Source: Desulfobulbaceae bacterium (GTDB taxonomy: Bacteria; Desulfobacterota; Desulfobulbia; Desulfobulbales; Desulfocapsaceae). Taken from it: a DNA stretch of 43,695 nucleotides. The stretch's first letter is position 1, and every line of letters starts with the position of its first letter. The stretch is taken from NCBI GenBank assembly GCA_011391225.1, contig JAABQY010000004.1, positions 1 to 43,695 of the forward strand, read 5' to 3'. Shown here piece after piece: positions 19,677 through 38,239 of the stretch. Position numbers and translations under genes: made by a program. Under the pieces are notes generated by a model. It searched no databases, was not told the origin of the DNA, and was given only the letters and a program-made list of their open reading frames with translations.

Positions 19677-21227
19677 ATGAAGACTGATGACCAACTAGAA
19701 CATCTGAGAAAACTCAGGGAAGAAGCCCGATTGGGCGGTGGTCAAAAAAGAATCGATAAACAGCATGAAAAAGGCCTTATGACCGCCAGGGAGCGTATTG
19801 ATCTGCTCTTGGACAAAGGCTCTTTTGAAGAATTTGACATGTTCAAGACCCATAGATGCAGGGATTTCGGCATGGACAAGCAGGTCTTTCTGGGAGACGG
19901 TGTAGTAACCGGGCATGGTACCGTCGACGGCCGCATAGTCTATGTTTTTGCCCAGGATTTCACTGTCCTTGGTGGTTCCCTGTCAGAAACATTTGCGGAA
20001 AAAATATGTAAAATTATGGATCTAGCCATGAGGAACGGCGCTCCTGTGGTTGGATTAAATGATTCCGGAGGGGCACGTATTCAAGAAGGAATCGAGAGTC
20101 TTGCCGGTTATTCGGAAATATTCCAACGCAATGTCATGGCTTCGGGAGTAGTTCCGCAGATCTCGGCTATTTTTGGCCCCTGTGCCGGTGGTGCGGTATA
20201 TTCGCCCGCCCTCACCGATTTTGTCATCATGGTCCAGAAAAAATCATATATGTTTCTCACCGGGCCGAAAGTTGTTAAGTCAGTAACACACGAAGACGTA
20301 GACGAAGAGACCTTGGGCGGGGCGGCTATGCATGCGAGCAGGAGCGGGGTAGTTGATTATCCGGCGGGATCAGGTGCCGACGCCATTGCTTACGTTCGCC
20401 GGTTGCTTTCGTTTCTTCCTCAGAATAACATGGAAAATCCTCCCCTTGTACCCTGTAACGATCCGGCAGATCGTGAGGTTGTCACGCTCAATAAGATTAT
20501 TCCTGAAAATCCTAATGCTGCATATGATATGAAGGATGTCATTCGCCAAACCGTTGACAACGAGGATTTTTTTGAGATTAAAGAAAACTTTGCTCCGAAT
20601 CTTTTGGTTGGGTTTGCCAGGTATAATGGGATGAGTGTCGGAATAGTCGCCAACCAACCTGCCCATCTCTCAGGTGTTCTTGATATCGATTCGTCGATAA
20701 AGGGTGCACGTTTTGTCAGGTTCTGCGATTGTTTCAATATTCCTGTCGTTACCTTTGTAGATGTACCGGGTTTCTTGCCGGGAACTGCTCAGGAGTTTGG
20801 TGGAGTAATACGTAATGGCGCCAAAATTCTTTATGCTTATGCCGAGGCGACTATTCCCAAGGTTACCGTGATAACCAGAAAGGCGTATGGTGGAGCTTAT
20901 TGCGTCATGTCATCCAAACATTTGCGCGGCGATATAAACTATGCCTGGCCTACCGCTGAAATTGCGGTTATGGGGGCAAGGGGCGCTGCTGGAGTTTTGT
21001 ATGGCAAAGATGCACAGAAAGCACCGGATCCAAGCGCATTTTTGGCCGAAAAAGAAAAAGAATACCAAGATGCTGTTGCCAATCCCTACGTCGCAGCCCA
21101 GCGTGGATACATTGATGATATCATCGAACCTTCGAAAACCCGGGCGAGAATCATCAGGTCACTCGGCTTGCTCCAGAATAAGCGCGATACAAATCCGATG
21201 AAAAAGCATGGTAATATACCACTATAA
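19677..21227 (+). CDS. Acyl-CoA carboxyltransferase (methylmalonyl-CoA carboxyltransferase 12S / propionyl-CoA carboxylase beta-like)
   Basis: [85 protein letters not shown]; ends MKKHGNIPL. Confidence 0.93.
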
Positions 21228-21286: not shown

Positions 21287-21571
21287 ATGTCTGTAAAGAT
21301 TTTTATCAAACGAAAAGTGCAGGACGATAATGCCGTTGAACTGACACTCCTCCTGAAAAAGTTACGGGCTCTCGCTCTCAGCCAACCCGGCTATATTTCA
21401 GGGGAAACTTTCAACAGGATAGACAAAAAGGACGAATGCATTGTTGTTGGTACCTGGCGTTCGTTGGAAGACTGGAATAATTGGGTGAACAATCCCAAAC
21501 GCATTGAAGTTCAGTCGGAGATAGACAAACTGCTTGGCGAGGAAACCGAATACGCCATGTACAACTCCTAA
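21287..21571 (+). CDS. Antibiotic biosynthesis monooxygenase (ABM)-fold small protein
   Basis: LSQPGYISGETFNRIDKKDECIVVGTWRSLEDWNNWVNNPKRIEVQSEID pattern of dimeric alpha/beta-barrel ABM domains; RBS GGCTTAGGAG upstream. Confidence 0.75.
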   Translation: MSVKIFIKRKVQDDNAVELTLLLKKLRALALSQPGYISGETFNRIDKKDECIVVGTWRSLEDWNNWVNNPKRIEVQSEIDKLLGEETEYAMYNS

Positions 21572-21661: not shown

Positions 21662-21880
21662 ATGGGTGATGTGATGGCAGGTCAAAGAAAAAAAATGGCT
21701 GCCGCCCTGGCTGCCGTGAGTCTCTATCTGCAACAGGAGGAAGCTCTGGCCGCCCAAGAGCAGCTGGCGCCTCTTAAGAAACCTGAATGTTTCGAGTTTA
21801 GCCAGTGGGGACAGAGTGGGCGGCAGGAGATGATGGCCATGCGGAAATTAATCCAGCTGAGAGCGTTTACCCGCTTTTAA
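21662..21880 (+). CDS. Small soluble protein resembling the C-terminal tail of OadG/MmdD subunits (start uncertain; ORF opens at 21596)
   Basis: KMAAALAAVSLYLQQEE ... FSQWGQSGRQEMMAMRKL resembles MmdD of this window (ELVAVITTVLAMKMQ ... SPLWNRAGIIEQMNSRL); lies between the 12S- and 5S-like genes. Confidence 0.6.
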   Translation: MGDVMAGQRKKMAAALAAVSLYLQQEEALAAQEQLAPLKKPECFEFSQWGQSGRQEMMAMRKLIQLRAFTRF

Positions 21881-21923: not shown

Positions 21924-23897
21924 ATGAGCGATCAAGTCAAGATGACCCCGTTGAACTATTTCGCAGACCGGCCAAAGGCTAGGAATCCTGTAAAAATTAT
22001 GGATCTGTCACTGCGTGACGGCCACCAGTCCCTTTTCGCTACCCGCGGGCGCACGGAGGATATGATCCCGGTAGCCGAACTCATGGATGAGGTTGGTTTC
22101 TGGGCGATTGAAACCTGGGGTGGAGCCACGTTTGATACCATGCACCGCTTTCTCAACGAGGATCCCTGGGAGCGGTTGCGTACCCTGAAACGCTATATTA
22201 AAAAGACCCCGTTCTCTATGTTGCTGCGGGCTCAGAACCTGGTTGGTTACCGTAATTATGCCGATGATCTTGCCTTTGCTTTTGTTGAACGTGCGGCAGA
22301 AAACGGTATGGATATATTTCGGACTTTCGATGCCTTAAACGATTATCGAAACTTCGAGACGGTGGTCAAACAGATTAAAAAGAGTGGCAAACATTTTCAA
22401 GGCTGCATCTGTTACACGCTCACCGAACCTCGACTTGGCGGGGAGGTTTATAATCTTGAGTATTATATTGATAGGGCCAAATCCCTGGAGTCGATGGGGG
22501 CGGATTCCGTCTGTATTAAAGATATGGCTGGGTTGTTGGCTCCTTATGACGCCTATCCCCTCATTAAAGCACTTAAAAAAGCCGTGAAGGTACCTATTCA
22601 TCTGCACAGCCACTTTACCTCGGGCATGTCGCCGATGACCCACCTCAAAGCCATTGAAGCAGGTGTCGATATTATCGATACGTGCATGACTCCTTATGCC
22701 TACAGGACTTCGCATGCAGCGGTCGAGCCTTTGGTAATGGCCCTTTTGGGGACAAATCGCGATACCGGCTTTGATATTAAAAAACTCGCCGAAATCAATG
22801 ATATTTTCGAAAAAGAAGTAATGCCGAAATACAAGCATCTCCTTGATGATTCCAAGGTTTCGATTATTGATATCAACGTCTTGCTGCATCAGACTCCGGG
22901 TGGAATGTTGTCGAATCTTGTTAACCAATTACGGGAAATGGACGCTCTCGATAAAATTGATGAAGTGTACAAAGAACTGCCGCGTGTCCGCAAAGATCTC
23001 GGCCAAATCCCCCTAGTCACACCGACCAGCCAGATTGTTGGTGTCCAGACGGTAAACAATGTTTTGCACGATACCCCTGGCGAGCGATACAAGATGATCA
23101 CCGGGCAAGTCAAGGATCTCTGCTTTGGTTTGTACGGCAAGACTGCGGTACCGATCAACCCGGAAGTGCAAGCCAAAGCTCTGAAAGGCTATCCCCGTGG
23201 AGAAAAACCGATCACCTGTCGTCCGGCAGAAGTTCTTGCGCCGGAACTTGCAAAGGCAAAAGCCGAGATTGGTGATTTGGCGGCAGATATGGATGACCTC
23301 ATCCTGTATGCCCAGTTTCCTGTCACCGGCAAGAAATTTCTTGAGTGGAAGTATGGCAAAGCTGAAGCGCCCGCGAGTGTCAAGCCTCTTACCATTGAAG
23401 ATGTTAAGAAAAAAGATGAGCTTGTTAAAAAGGCTTTAGCCGGCAAACTCGTTGAGAAAAAGGAAGTTGAAAAACCTCTGAAGTCGCAAGCCGTAAGAAC
23501 CTTCAACGTGTTTGTTGATGACGACTTTTTTGCAGTTGAGGTTGATCCAGTGGGAAACACACATTTTGTTTCAGCTCCTCAGCCTGTTATTGCTGCACCC
23601 GCGTCCGCGCCTGTTGCCGTAACACCTGCACCCATGAAAGCCCCTGCTCCTGCACCTGCCTCAGTACCTGTGCACCAAGAGGAAGGGACGGTCCTTCTTG
23701 CACCTATGCCGGGAATGATCGTTAAATATTTGGTGAAAGTAGGAGATCAGGTTACCCAGGGCGACACCATTGTTATCCTTGAGGCCATGAAAATGGAAAA
23801 CGCCCTTACAGCCCCCTGTGACGGCAAGGTTCAATGTATCAAGTTTGCCAGTGGTGACACTGTGTCAAAAGGTGCTGTTCTCTGTGTAATCGGATAG
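21924..23897 (+). CDS. Methylmalonyl-CoA carboxyltransferase 5S-like / oxaloacetate decarboxylase alpha-like subunit fused to a biotinyl carrier domain
   Basis: IMDLSLRDGHQSLFATRGRTEDM; ETWGGATFDTMHRFLNEDPWERLR; Ala/Pro-rich linker; [17 protein letters not shown] biotinylation motif. ORF opens at 21891; ATG at 21924 (MSDQVKMT) preferred. Confidence 0.92.
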   Translation: MSDQVKMTPLNYFADRPKARNPVKIMDLSLRDGHQSLFATRGRTEDMIPVAELMDEVGFWAIETWGGATFDTMHRFLNEDPWERLRTLKRYIKKTPFSMLLRAQNLVGYRNYADDLAFAFVERAAENGMDIFRTFDALNDYRNFETVVKQIKKSGKHFQGCICYTLTEPRLGGEVYNLEYYIDRAKSLESMGADSVCIKDMAGLLAPYDAYPLIKALKKAVKVPIHLHSHFTSGMSPMTHLKAIEAGVDIIDTCMTPYAYRTSHAAVEPLVMALLGTNRDTGFDIKKLAEINDIFEKEVMPKYKHLLDDSKVSIIDINVLLHQTPGGMLSNLVNQLREMDALDKIDEVYKELPRVRKDLGQIPLVTPTSQIVGVQTVNNVLHDTPGERYKMITGQVKDLCFGLYGKTAVPINPEVQAKALKGYPRGEKPITCRPAEVLAPELAKAKAEIGDLAADMDDLILYAQFPVTGKKFLEWKYGKAEAPASVKPLTIEDVKKKDELVKKALAGKLVEKKEVEKPLKSQAVRTFNVFVDDDFFAVEVDPVGNTHFVSAPQPVIAAPASAPVAVTPAPMKAPAPAPASVPVHQEEGTVLLAPMPGMIVKYLVKVGDQVTQGDTIVILEAMKMENALTAPCDGKVQCIKFASGDTVSKGAVLCVIG

Positions 23898-28317: not shown

Positions 28318-28929
28318 TCAAGGGGTGTGTCCTTGTTGATGTTTTTGCGGATCGACCATTCCTTGCCAAACCATTTCGAACATGACATTGGCCTGCTCGG
28401 AAAGGCTGTCTTTCTTGCCGCGGAGTATCCACATAAAAAAACTGCGCTGTACGAATCCCATAAAGAAGTCCAGCAAGGTCCCGGCTCGTACATTGGGGTT
28501 GAGGATTCCTTCCTTTTGCCCCTGGCGGAGGACATCGATCATCAGAGACATCATCCGCGGTTGATCGAAGGTTTCATCGGCCATCCAGGTCTTCATCGGC
28601 AGGGTCATGAAAACTATCCTGCCGAGACCTTCATGTCGTTCGTAGTAATCAAGCTGGAGCCAGAAAACCTTGCGCAACTTTTCCTTCAAGTTTTCTATGC
28701 CTTGGAGGTGATCGACTATACGATCGGTCAACTTACCCATCCAGATATCGACAAAGGCAAACACCAGGTGCTCCTTACTGCCGTAATGCTTGTAGATGGT
28801 GGTGAAGCTGACACCAGCCTTGGCGGCAATGTCGCGAATGGAAGCCCGGTGAAAATCCGATTCGGAAAATATTTCAAGTACAGCCTTCTCAAGTCTTGCG
28901 TGAATATCACTGCTCAATTCGTCTGACAT
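28318..28929 (-). CDS. TetR-family transcriptional regulator (TetR1); start taken at MSDELSSDIHARL
   Basis: HTH ASIRDIAAKAGVSFTTIYKHYGSKEHLVFAFV; closely similar to TetR2 in this window. Confidence 0.92.
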   Translation of the reverse strand: MSDELSSDIHARLEKAVLEIFSESDFHRASIRDIAAKAGVSFTTIYKHYGSKEHLVFAFVDIWMGKLTDRIVDHLQGIENLKEKLRKVFWLQLDYYERHEGLGRIVFMTLPMKTWMADETFDQPRMMSLMIDVLRQGQKEGILNPNVRAGTLLDFFMGFVQRSFFMWILRGKKDSLSEQANVMFEMVWQGMVDPQKHQQGHTP

Positions 28930-29108
28930 TGATATTGTCCTATGTGCATTTTTTGTTGTTGCAGGTGAGGTGGCAACTTTTGGGGGATCATTTGTTAATG
29001 TCAAGGCTGAGTTCCACATGCGTATAGATGTTTTTCAAAATATAAAAATATAACTGTATAAAATATCGATAGAAAAAATTATGCAGAAAAAATTGATTTA
29101 AAGCGAAA

Positions 29109-29280: not shown

Positions 29281-30444
29281 TCATTTACCAAAAAGTGACA
29301 GCAATACTCCTGCAGCAACCGCCGATCCTATAACACCTGCCACATTCGGCCCCATGGCGTGCATGAGGAGGAAGTTGCCGGGGTCCTCCTTTTGGCCGAC
29401 AACTTGGGAAACCCTGGCTGCCATCGGTACAGCCGAGACCCCTGCCGAACCGATAAGGGGGTTAATGGGCACCTTTAAAAATTTGTTCATGAGCTTGGCA
29501 AGCAAGACCCCACCAGCTGTACCCATAGCAAAAGCAGTTACTCCGAGAGCGAGGATTGCCAGGGTTTGCACCGTTAAAAATCGCTCGGCACTGGCGGTAG
29601 CGCCTACAGTTACCCCAAGAAAAATGGTGATAATGTTAATCAAGGCATTTTTTGAGGTGTCTTCAAGTCTGCTGACGACGCCACTCTCTCTGAACAGATT
29701 GCCAAGCATGAGCATGCCGATGAGTGTACCAGCTGGCGGCACCATGAGAGAAACCACCACTGTTACGATAATCGGAAAAAGGATGCGTTCCCGTTTACTG
29801 ACTTCACGCAGCTGGCTCATTCTGATCAACCGTTCTTTTTTAGTGGTCAGCAGTCTCATGATCGGCGGCTGAATGATAGGTACCATAGCCATATACGAGT
29901 AAGCAGCTATGGCTATAGGCCCAAGGAGATGCGGCGCGAGTTTTGACGAGAGAAAGATCGCCGTAGGGCCGTCAGCTCCGCCGATTATACCGATGGAAGC
30001 AGCCTCCTGAGCGTTAAAAAGCCCAGAACTGATAGCACCAATAAAGGTAAGGAAGATACCCAGTTGGGCGGCCGCCCCTAAAAGAAGCGATTTGGGGTTG
30101 GCGATGAGCGGCCCGAAATCCGTCATTGCACCAACACCCATGAAGATAAGCGGCGGGAAAATGCCCAGACAATCGCCCTGATAAAGATAATACAGGAGGC
30201 CACCGGGCTCGATGGTATGGATCATATTATTCTTGATTTCCAGTATCGGTGGCGCCATCATTCCGGCAAGGGGCAGATTGGTTAAAAGAACACCAAAGGC
30301 AATTGGCACGAGGAGCAGCGGTTCGAATTTCTTGACAATAGCCAGATACAGCAAAATGCACGCCACTGCCATCATAACCAGTGCTCCGGGTGTTAGAGCA
30401 AAAAAACCCGTGCTTTTAATAAATGCGAGAATTGGTTCCAGCAT
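29281..30444 (-). CDS. mmdB: Na+-translocating decarboxylase beta subunit
   Basis: [45 protein letters not shown] signature of OadB/MmdB/GcdB. Confidence 0.94.
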
Positions 30445-30457
30445 GAAGATGTCTCCT

Positions 30458-30871
30458 TTATGTTCCTAATACTACGAGAATATCACCGGGGTTAACCGAA
30501 GCTCCTTGGCTGACATTCAGCTGTTTTACCACGCCGTCAGCAGGCGCCAAGATTTCGTTTTCCATCTTCATAGCTTCAAGAATCATCAGGGTATGACCTT
30601 TGGCGACGGCATCGCCGGTACTCACCTCAACCCGCAGGATTGTGCCCGGCATAGGTGCCACAATGGTTTCACCGCTGCCACTGTTTGTAACAGGTTTTGC
30701 CGGTTCAGATTTTTGCGTCACTGGAGGTTTGTCGGGTCTCGGGACTGACGCGGCTCTAGCCTCTGTCGGTCGGGAAGTGTTTCCTCCCTGCAGTTCTTCA
30801 ATACCTACCTGGTATTCATTGCCATTCACTACTACTCTGAACATTTTCATTTTGACGTTCTCCCTCTTCAT
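30458..30871 (-). CDS. mmdC: Biotin carrier subunit of decarboxylase (biotinyl domain protein)
   Basis: [43 protein letters not shown]. Confidence 0.92.
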
Positions 30872-31278
30872 TAAAGTCTGCTGTTCATTTGCTCGATTAT
30901 TCCCGCCCGGTTCCAGAGTGGAGAACGATCTTCAATTTTTTGGATATTTCTGATAACAATGTTATCAGCGGTGGTCTGCATTTTCATGGCAAGAACTGTG
31001 GTGATTACTGCGACAAGTTCGTTGTCATCTTGTTGTTCAACAAGTTCTGTCTTCTGCACCACTTGCGCGGCCGAGGCCGTTGTTTCCGGCTGAGCGACAC
31101 TTCGATTAATCAGTCGGTCCATCCAGGAGATGAGCACCTGGAGGATGATCAAAGCAATAAAAGTTATGCCCATGCCGAGCACGGTAGTCACCAGCCCTGC
31201 CAGAAGTTTATGGGTAAAGGATAAGGTTTTTATGGTTTCGGGATTGGCGAATTGAGCCAACAGTTCAGTTATGGTCAT
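30871..31278 (-). CDS. mmdD: OadG/MmdD-like membrane-anchor subunit
   Basis: One N-terminal TM segment (LLAGLVTTVLGMGITFIALIILQVLISWM) with acidic linker and OadG-like tail; position between mmdA and mmdC. Confidence 0.85.
   Translation of the reverse strand: MTITELLAQFANPETIKTLSFTHKLLAGLVTTVLGMGITFIALIILQVLISWMDRLINRSVAQPETTASAAQVVQKTELVEQQDDNELVAVITTVLAMKMQTTADNIVIRNIQKIEDRSPLWNRAGIIEQMNSRL
30950..30968. promoter_or_regulatory. Perfect palindrome CTGATAACAATGTTATCAG inside mmdD, upstream of mmdC
   Basis: 8-bp arms CTGATAAC/GTTATCAG around AAT; best match to the operator motif. Confidence 0.45.
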
Positions 31279-31293: not shown

Positions 31294-32841
31294 TTAAAGT
31301 GGAATGTTGCCGTGCTTTTTGGTAGGGCGTTTTTCCCGTTTTCCGGCCAGCATATTATAGGCGTCAATTATCCGCTGGCGGGTTGTGTGCGGTTCGATAA
31401 CATCATCGACAAAGCCGCGTTCGGCCGCCTTATAGGGGGTGGCAAATTCTGCTGCATAGTTCTCGAGGATCTTTTGTTTGGTGCCTTTTTTATCCTCTGC
31501 CGCTGCAATATCGTTTTTAAAGATGATATTTACCGCACCTTCGGAGCCCATGACAGCGACCTCCGCTGTTGGCCAGGCAAAGACCATGTCGGCGCCGAGG
31601 GATTTTGAGCACATGGCGACGTAGGCCCCGCCGTAGGCCTTTCTGGTGATGACCGTAACTTTGGGTACGGTTGCTTCACTGTAGGCATAAAGAATTTTCG
31701 CACCGTGTCTGATTATACCGCCAAATTCCTGGTTGGTGCCGGGAAGAAAACCGGGGACATCGACGAAGGTGAGAAGCGGGATATTGAAGGCGTCGCAGGT
31801 TCTGATAAAGCGGGCTGCCTTGTCACCGGCATTCATGTCCAGGCATCCCGCCATGACCTTTGGCTGGTTGGCGATAATTCCCACCGATTGGCCGTTGATT
31901 CTGGCCAGTCCGGCTATCAGGTTGGTGGCAAAATAGGGCTGATATTGCATGAAATCCCCATTGTCGACAATGGGAATGATAACGTCGAGGATGTCGTAAG
32001 GTTTGTTCGGGTTGTCGGGGATCAGGGTGTTGAGCTCGTCGATGGTCCTGTTGAGATCGTCGGTAGTTGCCTGGATCGGGGCTTTTTCCATGCTGTTGGC
32101 CGGGAGAAACTGGAGGAGCCGCCGGATGTCTTCGAGGCACTGCAGTTCCGAGTCGGCGATAAAGTGGACGTTGCCGCTGACGCTGTTGTGGGTCATGGCG
32201 CCACCGAGTTCCTCGGCGGTAACGATTTCACCGGTAACCGTCTTAATGACCTGTGGGCCGGTTATGAACATCTGCGAAGTTTTATCGACCATGAAGATGA
32301 AATCAGTCAGTGCCGGGGAGTATACGGCACCGCCGGCGCACGGCCCCATTACTGCAGAAATCTGAGGAATAACCCCTGAATAGATGGAGTTGCGGTAGAA
32401 GATATCGCCGTATCCGGAAAGGGCGTCGACCGCTTCCTGGATTCTGGCGCCACCGGAATCGTTCAGCCCGACGATCGGAGCTCCGACTTTGACGGCGCTG
32501 TCCATGGCTTTGACAACTTTTCTGGCGTGCATTTCGCCAAGTGCTCCACCGGTAATGGTAAAATCCTGGGAGAAGGCGTAGACCACTCGCCCTTCGATCT
32601 GCCCATAACCGGTGACCACCGATTCGCCTTCAAAATCAAGCTTGTCCATACCGAAACGGGTGCAGCGGTTTTTTACAAAGGCGTCAATCTCGATAAACGT
32701 TCCTTGATCAAAAAGATGAAGGAGGCGTTCTCTGGCGGTCATCTTGCCGCTGCTATGCTGTTTTTCAATCCTCTCAGGGCCTCCTCCGAGGCAGATTTTT
32801 TCTTTCTTTTTCTGTAAGATTTCCGTTTTATCCAACGACAT
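31294..32841 (-). CDS. mmdA: Methylmalonyl-CoA decarboxylase carboxyltransferase (alpha) subunit; start taken at MSLDKTEIL
   Basis: [85 protein letters not shown]; operon with mmdD, mmdC, mmdB. Confidence 0.9.
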   Translation of the reverse strand: MSLDKTEILQKKKEKICLGGGPERIEKQHSSGKMTARERLLHLFDQGTFIEIDAFVKNRCTRFGMDKLDFEGESVVTGYGQIEGRVVYAFSQDFTITGGALGEMHARKVVKAMDSAVKVGAPIVGLNDSGGARIQEAVDALSGYGDIFYRNSIYSGVIPQISAVMGPCAGGAVYSPALTDFIFMVDKTSQMFITGPQVIKTVTGEIVTAEELGGAMTHNSVSGNVHFIADSELQCLEDIRRLLQFLPANSMEKAPIQATTDDLNRTIDELNTLIPDNPNKPYDILDVIIPIVDNGDFMQYQPYFATNLIAGLARINGQSVGIIANQPKVMAGCLDMNAGDKAARFIRTCDAFNIPLLTFVDVPGFLPGTNQEFGGIIRHGAKILYAYSEATVPKVTVITRKAYGGAYVAMCSKSLGADMVFAWPTAEVAVMGSEGAVNIIFKNDIAAAEDKKGTKQKILENYAAEFATPYKAAERGFVDDVIEPHTTRQRIIDAYNMLAGKREKRPTKKHGNIPL

Positions 32842-32984
32842 TGCGTTACGCTCCTTGATTGATGTTTGTCTCTTTCGATCGGTGTCGCCGTCGAAGTTTC
32901 CCCCTTTTGAAACACTCAAAGACCAGCACAGCATAGACCACCTGGTGGGGCTTTATGCCCAGTTGAGGGTGGGTACTATGGGTA

Positions 32985-33617
32985 CTACATTTCTTTTCCC
33001 GATGTTTCCGGCAGGGCAACATAACGAACGATTTCCGGATTGACCATGCCCTGCCAGACCATCTCGAAGAGAGAATTGGCCCCTTCCGCTAAACATTCCT
33101 GTTTGCCCCGTATTACCCACATGAAAAAGGTTCGCTGGATGAACCCAAGCATAAAATCGAGCAGGCTTCCGGCTCTGACATGGGGATTGATGATACCTTG
33201 TTGCTGCCCGGTTTTCAGTACTGTGATGATCAGGTCAACTCTTCTTTTTTGATCGAAAGAGTCGTCGGCCATCCAGGTCTTCATTGGCAGGGTCATGAAG
33301 AGAATGCGTCCGAGTCCTTCATGGCGTTCGTAGTAATCGAGGTGCAGCCAGAAAACTTTTCTGAGTTTTTCCTTGAGATCCTCAATGCCGTTGAGGTGGT
33401 CTTCGATGCGATCGGTAAGTTTCCTCATCCAGATATTCACATAGGCAAACAGAAGGTGCTCTTTGCTGCCAAAATGTTTGTAAATAGTCGAAAAACTCAC
33501 ACCGGCAAGGTCGGCGACATCGCGGATACTGGCTTTATGGAAATCGGCGGTGGAGAAAATTTCCATAACTGCCGATTCAAGTTTCTTTTGTACTTCTGGG
33601 TTGAGTTCATCTAACAT
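32985..33617 (-). CDS. TetR-family transcriptional regulator (TetR2), paralogue of TetR1
   Basis: HTH ASIRDVADLAGVSFSTIYKHFGSKEHLLFAYV; directly upstream of mmdA on the same strand. Confidence 0.92.
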   Translation of the reverse strand: MLDELNPEVQKKLESAVMEIFSTADFHKASIRDVADLAGVSFSTIYKHFGSKEHLLFAYVNIWMRKLTDRIEDHLNGIEDLKEKLRKVFWLHLDYYERHEGLGRILFMTLPMKTWMADDSFDQKRRVDLIITVLKTGQQQGIINPHVRAGSLLDFMLGFIQRTFFMWVIRGKQECLAEGANSLFEMVWQGMVNPEIVRYVALPETSGKEM

Positions 33618-36841: not shown

Positions 36842-38239
36842 CTACAATTTGGCCATCTTGTTTACAGCAGACGAGACTGCTATGCCGCCGCTTCCCGTGT
36901 AACTTTCATGATTTTTTTCGATGTGGGAAAGCTGGTAGAGATAATTGACCATCATTCCTGCCGATTGTCCGATGCCTTTCTCGGAAAGATCTGCAGCCCA
37001 GTTGATCCGCTCAATTTTCGCACCGTTTGACAAATGGAAATGGCTTACTCTGTCAAAAGCTTGGAGATTTTTCTTGGCGGAGAGAAGATAGCTCGCGCAA
37101 AGTCGAAGAAGGATCGGTTTCAGGGGGTGGGGACTATCTTCTTTCAGGTGTTCTTTGAGATTATCAATGGCTGTAAAGAAGAATTCTTTTGCATCGCTTC
37201 CTCTGGCCATTTCCTTTAGGAGTTTTAACTCCCGCTCGGAGAATACCAGTTTCTCCGGATGTTTTCGGAGGTAGGTCAGGAAGCCGGGGATCGGCGAGAG
37301 CGTGGAAAAAGTCTTGAGGTTAGGGAGCTTGGCGCTCAAATCCTTGACCACATTTTTGATCAAAAAATTTCCAAAACCAACTCCGGCAAGACCAGCCTGG
37401 CAATTGGAGATGGAATAAAATATCGCACAATCGGCTTGGCCCTGCGGGAGCGTCGGTTTGCTTTCATCAAGCAGGTCGTGAATGTTTGCGGCGATACCAT
37501 TGACCAGGGCGACCTCGACAAAGATAAGCGGTTCCTGCGGCATGCGTGGATGAAAGTATGCAAAGCAGCGTCTATCCTCCCGCAGCCGGTTCTTCAGGTC
37601 TTGCCAGGATTTGATGGCATGGACTGCCTCATATTTGATGAGTTTTTCAAGCAGTGTCGCTGGAGTTTCCCAGGTGATGCGCTGCAGATCGAGAAAACCG
37701 ACATCAAACCAGGAAGAAAGCAGGCCGAGAATATCCTGATCAAGCGACTTAAGTGCCGGGTCTCCGGCGGTGAGAGGCAGGAGTTCTGCCCGGAGGTCGA
37801 CAAGAAATTTTACTCCTTCTTGCAATCCATTGAATTGTCGGAGTAGTTGTGTTCGTGGAGGGATGAGCATCTGGCGCAAGGCATGATTCGATTGTCGTTG
37901 TTCCGCCGGTCCTGAACCTTGTGAACGTGCGGCTATTGCGGCTTCAACAGCTTCGTTGTTGACATCGTATTCTTTGCTCAGCAGCTGGAGAAAACGTTTG
38001 CGGCCTTGTGAATTCAGTACTAAATAGGTTTCTCCCAGTTCCGCTGCTCTGGTCCGGGCAGAAACCTCTCCTCCCCGACCCTCCAGACAGGCATTAATTC
38101 TTGCCCGGAGCTTTTCTACATCCCCGTCCGGCAGGTCGGCATCAACGGAATTTTTTAGGGCTGTCTGGTCACCAAGTGGCCAGATAAGGCGCATCCTGCG
38201 TAAAGTTCTGTCCCATAAAGGCTCTTCCCGTTCAAACAT
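36842..38239 (-). CDS. Malonyl-CoA decarboxylase
   Basis: CFAYFHPRMPQEPLIFVEVALVNGIAANIHDLL; FYSISNCQAGLAGVGFGNFLIKNVV; FSTLSPIPGFLTYLRK; FHLSNGAKIERINWAADLSEKGIGQSAGMMVNYLY. Confidence 0.94.
   Translation of the reverse strand: MFEREEPLWDRTLRRMRLIWPLGDQTALKNSVDADLPDGDVEKLRARINACLEGRGGEVSARTRAAELGETYLVLNSQGRKRFLQLLSKEYDVNNEAVEAAIAARSQGSGPAEQRQSNHALRQMLIPPRTQLLRQFNGLQEGVKFLVDLRAELLPLTAGDPALKSLDQDILGLLSSWFDVGFLDLQRITWETPATLLEKLIKYEAVHAIKSWQDLKNRLREDRRCFAYFHPRMPQEPLIFVEVALVNGIAANIHDLLDESKPTLPQGQADCAIFYSISNCQAGLAGVGFGNFLIKNVVKDLSAKLPNLKTFSTLSPIPGFLTYLRKHPEKLVFSERELKLLKEMARGSDAKEFFFTAIDNLKEHLKEDSPHPLKPILLRLCASYLLSAKKNLQAFDRVSHFHLSNGAKIERINWAADLSEKGIGQSAGMMVNYLYQLSHIEKNHESYTGSGGIAVSSAVNKMAKL

What the first reader, a model, noticed from the sequence alone, without database searches (positions are those of the whole stretch)
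21662..21880. Membrane-anchor-free OadG/MmdD-like small protein in the transcarboxylase-like operon
The approximately 72-aa protein has a KMAAALAAVSLYLQ helix and a C-terminal SQWGQSGRQEMMAMRKL segment. These resemble the tail of the MmdD subunit here (ELVAVITTVLAMKMQ ... SPLWNRAGIIEQMNSRL), but no TM segment is evident from the preferred start. It may be a soluble assembly subunit holding 12S and 5S-biotinyl parts together, that is, a membrane-free counterpart of the Na+ pump's delta subunit.
Basis: partly seen in the sequence, partly recalled or inferred. Interest (0 to 1): 0.6.

Follow-up and report, generated by a model that had tools for sequence, protein, structure and literature searches.

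The report
Soluble adaptor subunit of bacterial transcarboxylase
A tiny, so far unnamed protein always travels with the carboxyl-swapping enzyme of propionate-metabolising sulfate reducers; it looks like the membrane-anchored clamp of a sodium pump with its anchor removed, and probably holds the soluble enzyme's two halves together.

Summary
The ORF is a real gene (dN/dS about 0.1-0.2). It is present in 58 of 60 sampled Desulfobulbales genomes that carry the 5S-BCCP gene; the exceptions lie at contig edges. It usually sits between 12S and 5S-BCCP. It has no TM and no Pfam, NCBIfam or PDB hit. It has two conserved elements: helix KKxAAALAAVxxYLQxEE and tail WxxSGRQxxMxxR.

A profile of the family matches the cytosolic tails of TM-anchored MmdD-type subunits (hhalign E 3e-5; 0 of 300 column shuffles as good). 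TM-anchored pump subunits with the same tail exist, one in a genome that also has the soluble form. Other TM-anchored subunits sit on 12S genes nested inside the soluble-partner 12S clade. The tail occurs in all 15 anchored subunits beside a 12S gene and in none of 15 parsed ones without, so it probably docks 12S. The helix probably docks the 5S association domain, as reported for OadG.

It is not an OadG family member (no TM). It is most like the "epsilon" subunit annotated in mmc clusters. Bridging itself is inferred: AlphaFold runs were inconclusive.

The parts
21674..21880 (+). Small soluble adaptor subunit (SML), 68 aa
   Evidence: Conserved start, SD-like sequence, dN/dS 0.09-0.21; homologues
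21689..21742 (+). Element 1: amphipathic helix KKMAAALAAVSLYLQQEE (residues 6-23), counterpart of the OadG/MmdD cytosolic helix
   Evidence: Alignment A1; hhalign to MmdD and OadG tails; helix in both AlphaFold models
21800..21868 (+). Element 2: tail SQWGQSGRQEMMAMRKLIQLRAF (residues 43-65), counterpart of the MmdD W..AG..QMNSR tail
   Evidence: Invariant W45, G49, M54, R57; hhalign to anchored tails
21664..21669 (+). Shine-Dalgarno-like GGGTGA for the 21674 start
   Evidence: Kept as GGTGA/GGGGA in six relatives
19677..21227 (+). 12S (MmdA-like) carboxyltransferase subunit, 516 aa
   Evidence: Pfam Carboxyl_trans 4e-199; PDB 12S and PCC-beta matches
21287..21571 (+). ABM-domain protein, 94 aa, between 12S and SML in this and related genera; missing in other clades
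   Evidence: Pfam ABM 2.9e-7; loci with and without it
21924..23897 (+). 5S carboxyltransferase with association domain fused to BCCP, 657 aa
   Evidence: HMGL-like, PYC_OADA and Biotin_lipoyl domains; PDB transcarboxylase 5S match
30871..31278 (-). MmdD (delta) of the Na+ pump: TM + helix + W tail, the anchored counterpart
   Evidence: OAD_gamma 6.7e-15
29281..30444 (-). MmdB, membrane subunit of the Na+ pump
   Evidence: Conserved pump gene order MmdA-MmdD-MmdC-MmdB in this and related loci
30458..30871 (-). MmdC, separate BCCP of the pump
   Evidence: Position and sequence
31294..32934 (-). MmdA of the pump (true start probably internal), 57% identical to the 12S at 19677-21227

Best explanation
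The gene encodes a small soluble adaptor subunit of a methylmalonyl-CoA/pyruvate-type transcarboxylase made of 12S and 5S-BCCP. It is homologous to the cytosolic half of the MmdD/OadG scaffold of decarboxylase Na+ pumps, without the membrane anchor. Two docking peptides are joined by a flexible Pro/Ala/Gln linker. The C-terminal WxxSGR element most likely docks the 12S carboxyltransferase. The N-terminal amphipathic helix most likely packs against the association domain of 5S, as the OadG helix is reported to do. The protein would thus staple 12S and 5S-BCCP into one complex in which the biotin arm can reach both active sites. Shown here: coding, conservation, gene linkage, homology to anchored tails, tail/12S association. 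Inferred: which element binds which subunit, and the stapling itself.
For: Coding: dN/dS 0.09-0.21. Linkage: 58 of 193 Desulfobulbales genomes have both this gene and the 5S-BCCP gene; one has only this gene (cut at a contig edge), two have only 5S (both at apparent contig edges), and the other 132 have neither. Gene order: between 12S (or ABM) and 5S in nearly all loci. Homology: hhalign against anchored tails collected independently with PF04277, E 3.2e-5, score 28.7 versus shuffle maximum 16.4 in 300 and 12.1 in 74 natural windows of 12S and 5S. Intermediates: the soluble-family HMM finds TM-anchored pump subunits with tails NLWGLSGRWQTMQQRR, NVWALSGRWQAMQQRR and SMWKISGRQESMIRR, the last with OAD_gamma 2e-5; one genome (G242) has both forms. 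Tree: anchored partners fall inside the 12S clade served by the soluble protein. Module rule: all 15 anchored subunits beside a 12S gene carry the W tail; 15 parsed ones without end after the helix or carry an unrelated extension. Literature: the OadG C-terminal helix binds the alpha (5S-type) association domain and deleting it releases alpha (PMC7274780). Desulfobulbus propionicus has measured methylmalonyl-CoA:pyruvate transcarboxylase activity (PMC3072085), and Desulfobulbus MAGs carry the gene.
Against: AlphaFold models gave no confident docking: the tail had pLDDT below 50 next to both 12S and 5S, and the 5S model itself was poor. MmdD keeps the helix in pumps that have no 5S gene beside it, so the helix may have another partner. 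Some loci keep the gene with only 12S-BCCP (L090, L097) or only 5S-BCCP (L107, L130, L132), with the other half elsewhere in the genome or not found. Propionibacterial transcarboxylase is described without such a subunit (own knowledge). No expression or interaction data.
Confidence: 0.68

Rival explanations
1. An epsilon-type (MmdE/MmcI-like) stabiliser that binds only the 12S carboxyltransferase and does not bridge to 5S.
For: W tail tracks 12S adjacency; two loci pair the gene with 12S and a separate BCCP while 5S lies elsewhere or was not found; 'epsilon subunit' (mmcI) is annotated beside mmcH and before the 5S gene in mmc clusters (PMC11206085).
Against: Near-perfect co-occurrence with 5S-BCCP; some loci keep it next to 5S without 12S; the helix is shared with OadG subunits that serve 5S-type enzymes.
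Confidence: 0.22
2. The soluble and the anchored adaptors compete for the same 12S, so this protein mainly controls how much 12S goes to the soluble enzyme and how much to the Na+ pump.
For: In family f7, genomes G182, G167 and G130 have one 12S gene but both the 5S-BCCP system and the anchored T3-MmdC-MmdB set; the soluble gene itself was seen in G182 and G167.
Against: In the window's genome each system has its own 12S-type gene (57% identical); the f7 genomes are MAGs 84-90% complete.
Confidence: 0.12
3. A member of the actinobacterial acyl-CoA carboxylase epsilon family (PF13822).
For: Similar size, a similar EELAALTAVLA helix and a downstream Trp in four annotated and two unannotated actinobacterial epsilon sequences.
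Against: No PF13822 hit for any of 23 members; hhalign score reached by 12 of 300 shuffles; epsilon works with a biotin carboxylase-BCCP subunit, absent here.
Confidence: 0.04
4. A leader peptide or untranslated ORF.
For: Short ORF between two large genes.
Against: Purifying selection at protein level, conserved SD, 106 different homologues, copies kept away from 12S in some genomes.
Confidence: 0.01

Closest known systems
MmdD / GcdD / OadG scaffold subunits of decarboxylase Na+ pumps (PF04277 OAD_gamma)
   Same: Cytosolic amphipathic helix, flexible Ala/Pro-rich linker and, in MmdD-type members, a W..[SA]G....M..R tail; profile similarity E 3e-5; encoded beside a 12S-type carboxyltransferase
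   Different: No transmembrane helix, no OAD_gamma hit, no MmdB in its operon, partner is 5S-BCCP
[quoted passage not shown]
   Same: Small TM-less protein; annotated beside the 12S gene in propionate-oxidising mmc clusters that also hold BCCP and 5S genes (PMC11206085). From memory (Huder and Dimroth 1993, not held): Veillonella MmdE resembles the MmdD C-terminus
   Different: No MmdE or MmcI sequence could be compared here; Veillonella MmdE belongs to a membrane pump that also keeps MmdD; in the window BCCP is fused to 5S
Actinobacterial acyl-CoA carboxylase epsilon (AccE/PccE, PF13822)
   Same: Small subunit encoded beside the CT beta subunit; reported to help assembly and activity (PMC13118682)
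   Different: No significant profile match; different partner enzyme
Propionibacterium transcarboxylase (12S, 5S, 1.3S)
   Same: 12S and 5S subunits closely related to solved ones
   Different: BCCP fused to 5S here; no equivalent small subunit known to me there

Membership tests
OadG/MmdD (PF04277 OAD_gamma) | N-terminal transmembrane helix | tested here: not met
   No TM-length hydrophobic segment in the 68 aa
OadG/MmdD (PF04277 OAD_gamma) | Score above the Pfam cut-off | tested here: not met
   No OAD_gamma hit for any of 23 members up to E 10
OadG/MmdD (PF04277 OAD_gamma) | Cytosolic helix and C-terminal tail homologous to known members | tested here: met
   hhalign E 3.2e-5 against combined anchored tails, 0 of 300 shuffles; intermediates L214-L216
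OadG/MmdD (PF04277 OAD_gamma) | Encoded with the membrane decarboxylase subunit MmdB/OadB | tested here: not met
   The operon holds 12S, ABM and 5S-BCCP; MmdB is in a separate operon on the other strand
MmdE/MmcI epsilon subunit | TM-less small protein encoded beside the 12S-type gene | tested here: met
   mmc cluster order from PMC11206085
MmdE/MmcI epsilon subunit | Similarity to the MmdD C-terminal part | tested here: met
MmdE/MmcI epsilon subunit | Sequence similarity to MmdE or MmcI itself | not testable with these tools
ACC epsilon (PF13822) | Pfam match | tested here: not met
ACC epsilon (PF13822) | Profile similarity | tested here: inconclusive
   Score 12.4; 12 of 300 shuffles as high, with only six epsilon sequences
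12S/5S transcarboxylase | 12S and 5S carboxyltransferases and a biotin carrier in one operon, no biotin carboxylase | tested here: met
   no biotin carboxylase gene recognised among the window's ORFs
12S/5S transcarboxylase | Transcarboxylase activity | not tested
   Activity reported for Desulfobulbus propionicus (PMC3072085), not for this organism

The most novel reading that the evidence does not exclude
Soluble (SML) and membrane-anchored (T3/MmdD) adaptors are interchangeable plugs for one 12S carboxyltransferase: the same enzyme is built into a cytosolic transcarboxylase or into a Na+ pump depending on which adaptor binds, and lineages have switched between the two by gaining or losing the adaptor's membrane anchor.
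Probability: 0.33. Interest if true: 0.68.

Novelty: new variant of a known kind. Interest (0 to 1): 0.47.

Why it matters
It supplies a missing fourth subunit for the transcarboxylase of propionate-metabolising sulfate reducers. It shows that the Na+ pump scaffold is modular: anchor, helix and 12S-docking tail. The same 12S lineage appears with soluble and with anchored adaptors, so how soluble carboxyl transfer and Na+ pumping interconvert in evolution becomes testable with two short proteins and one enzyme. It also gives a profile for genes that Pfam and NCBIfam do not cover, and a warning that transcarboxylase reconstitutions from these bacteria may fail without it.

Tried and rejected
Pfam, NCBIfam and PDB searches of the protein and its family: no relevant hit. 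AlphaFold2 on read-through chains 12S-SML and SML-5S from L109, where the genes lie in one frame (stops read as Ser): 12S folded fairly (pTM 0.74) but the SML tail had pLDDT below 50; the 5S chain was poor (mean pLDDT 54.5). No interface claim is made and no fold search was run. ACC epsilon: six actinobacterial sequences compared, no significant match. Plasmid search with a divergent member: none. Single stops in family f2 matches looked odd, but in the loci inspected they lie just outside the shorter protein. Papers on Veillonella MmdE are not held.

Full report
WHAT IS THERE. The finding's ORF lies between the 12S gene (19677-21227) plus a small ABM-domain gene (21287-21571) and the 5S-BCCP gene (21924-23897). 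The true start is ATG 21674, giving 68 aa, not 72. In a close relative a stop codon stands just before that Met (L005), and GGGTGA precedes it at the right distance and is kept as GGTGA/GGGGA in six relatives. dN/dS against six relatives is 0.09-0.21, so the protein is made and selected. No TM-length stretch exists (read directly; no TM predictor was run). No Pfam, NCBIfam or PDB family matches it.

THE FAMILY. A search of 193 genomes of the class gave 59 strong hits, a scan of named genomes gave 80 loci in Desulfobulbaceae, Desulfocapsaceae, Desulfobacteraceae, Desulfosarcinaceae, Syntrophobacteraceae and others, and 59 of 297 genomes across the phylum have it. Nearly every locus reads 12S - (ABM) - small protein - 5S(-BCCP). 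The first alignment shows invariant A10, A11, A14, V15, E22, W45, G49, M54 and R57. The protein is two short conserved elements, helix KKxAAALAAVxxYLQxEE and tail WxxSGRQxxMxxR, joined by a variable Ala/Pro/Gln linker.

CO-OCCURRENCE. In the same 193 genomes, 60 have the 5S-BCCP gene and 58 of them have the small gene. G130's contig ends just upstream of 5S and G160's 5S is itself cut at its N-terminal side. The one genome with the small gene and no 5S (G094) has it at a contig edge. The other 132 genomes have neither. So the protein goes with this enzyme and with nothing else sampled.

RELATION TO THE PUMP SCAFFOLD. Anchored OadG/MmdD proteins were collected independently with PF04277. Three types appear: helix-only OadG without a 12S neighbour; MmdD with helix, VIRNIxKI and W..AG..QMNSR; and a third type (T3) with helix and SPWxxSGR. 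hhalign of the soluble family gives E 0.012 against MmdD, 4.7e-4 against T3 and 3.2e-5 against both combined (score 28.7; 300 column shuffles mean 8.4, maximum 16.4; reversed profile 13.5). Seventy-four natural 75-column windows of 12S and 5S score at most 12.1. ACC epsilon is not significant (12 of 300 shuffles).

INTERMEDIATES. An HMM from soluble members alone picked up TM-anchored pump subunits with an obvious soluble-type tail: L214 and L215 (TM, Pro/Ala linker, LAAAVAVALTLYLEE, NLWGLSGRWQTMQQRR) and L216 (SMWKISGRQESMIRR, OAD_gamma 2.2e-5), each beside MmdC and MmdB. Genome G242 has both the soluble (L220) and the anchored (L215) form. Adding these raises the profile match to E 3.4e-9; that figure is partly circular because the HMM chose them, so 3.2e-5 is the independent one.

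MODULE LOGIC. All 15 anchored subunits with a 12S gene beside them carry the W tail; 15 parsed ones without an adjacent 12S lack it, ending a few residues after the helix or, in L142 and L151, carrying an unrelated extension (the script missed five tails in the first group that one search shows; L138 could not be parsed). Related sequences are not independent, so this is an association, not a p-value. It makes the W tail the likely 12S-docking element. The helix is shared by all types; in OadG the corresponding C-terminal helix binds the association domain of the 5S-type alpha subunit and its removal releases alpha (PMC7274780). The window's own genome shows the three grades: OadG (C104) = TM + helix beside a 5S-type gene; MmdD = TM + helix + tail beside a 12S-type gene; the small protein = helix + tail, between 12S and 5S.

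TREE. On a 12S/MmdA tree the T3-associated 12S genes fall inside the Desulfobulbales clade served by the soluble protein, in two places, with starred support for the enclosing branches. Soluble partners also occur on a second, distant 12S clade (Desulfobacterales and Syntrophobacteraceae). Anchored and soluble adaptors have therefore been exchanged on one 12S lineage.

ONE 12S, TWO ADAPTORS. In family f7, G167 has 12S-ABM-SML-5S and T3-MmdC-MmdB on one contig with a single 12S gene in the genome. G182 has its only 12S in the pump operon and ABM-SML-5S on another contig. G130 is similar but its small gene would lie off the contig. These are MAGs at 84-90% completeness, so this is a lead.

HOW IT PROBABLY WORKS. 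12S moves the carboxyl between methylmalonyl-CoA and biotin, 5S between biotin and pyruvate. The operon has no MmdB and no biotin carboxylase, so 12S and 5S-BCCP must meet. The small protein most likely staples them: tail on 12S, helix on the 5S association domain. Shown: coding, linkage, homology, tail/12S association. Inferred: binding partners and stapling. Desulfobulbus propionicus has methylmalonyl-CoA:pyruvate transcarboxylase activity (PMC3072085). AlphaFold2 on 12S-SML and SML-5S read-through chains from L109 gave helices in the right places but no confident docking.

WHAT IS KNOWN. It is not a PF04277 member: TM and Pfam score were tested and not met. It works like that family's cytosolic half. 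The nearest known kind is the epsilon subunit: mmc clusters of propionate-oxidising Desulfofundulus are annotated mmcH (alpha), mmcI (epsilon), mmcJ (gamma), mmcK, mmcL (5S) (PMC11206085), and D. gibsoniae is said to lack epsilon and gamma (PMC4148979). From memory, Veillonella MmdE resembles the MmdD C-terminus; neither sequence nor paper was available. I therefore rate this a new, unannotated variant of the epsilon/delta scaffold kind, soluble and dedicated to a 12S/5S-BCCP enzyme.

Noticed in passing
Family f7 loci: L043 (G167:C93:1-8000), L233 (G182), L239 (G130), L245 (G167): Genomes with a single 12S gene but both a 5S-BCCP system and an anchored T3-MmdC-MmdB set, suggesting one carboxyltransferase shared by two complexes.
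   Followed up: partly
window 21287-21571; also L140:944-1219 and L146:1146-1421: An ABM-domain protein recurs both in the 12S-SML-5S operon and, at about 64% identity, upstream of OadG beside a different 5S-type gene; its role in biotin carboxyl transfer is unknown.
   Followed up: no
L107, L130, L132 (upstream genes): The small gene plus 5S-BCCP lies downstream of genes that look like NfeD and slipin (SPFH) membrane proteins, with 12S elsewhere in the genome.
   Followed up: partly
L090:3592-4544 and L097:5995-6889: 12S - small protein - stand-alone BCCP that resembles the C-terminal part of the 5S-BCCP fusion; in the L097 genome an intact 5S-BCCP lies alone elsewhere, in the L090 genome none was found.
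   Followed up: partly
L020 / G114:C1:1159934-1161903: 5S-BCCP (and the 12S upstream) are split over two reading frames in this one-contig genome; possible frameshifts or sequencing errors.
   Followed up: no
window 28318-29019 (-) and 32985-33617 (-): Two similar TetR-like regulators flank the Na+ pump operon, looking like a duplication.
   Followed up: no
window 36842-38239 (-); L122:8371-9801 (-): A gene that looks like malonyl-CoA decarboxylase occurs near methylmalonyl-CoA genes in both places.
   Followed up: no
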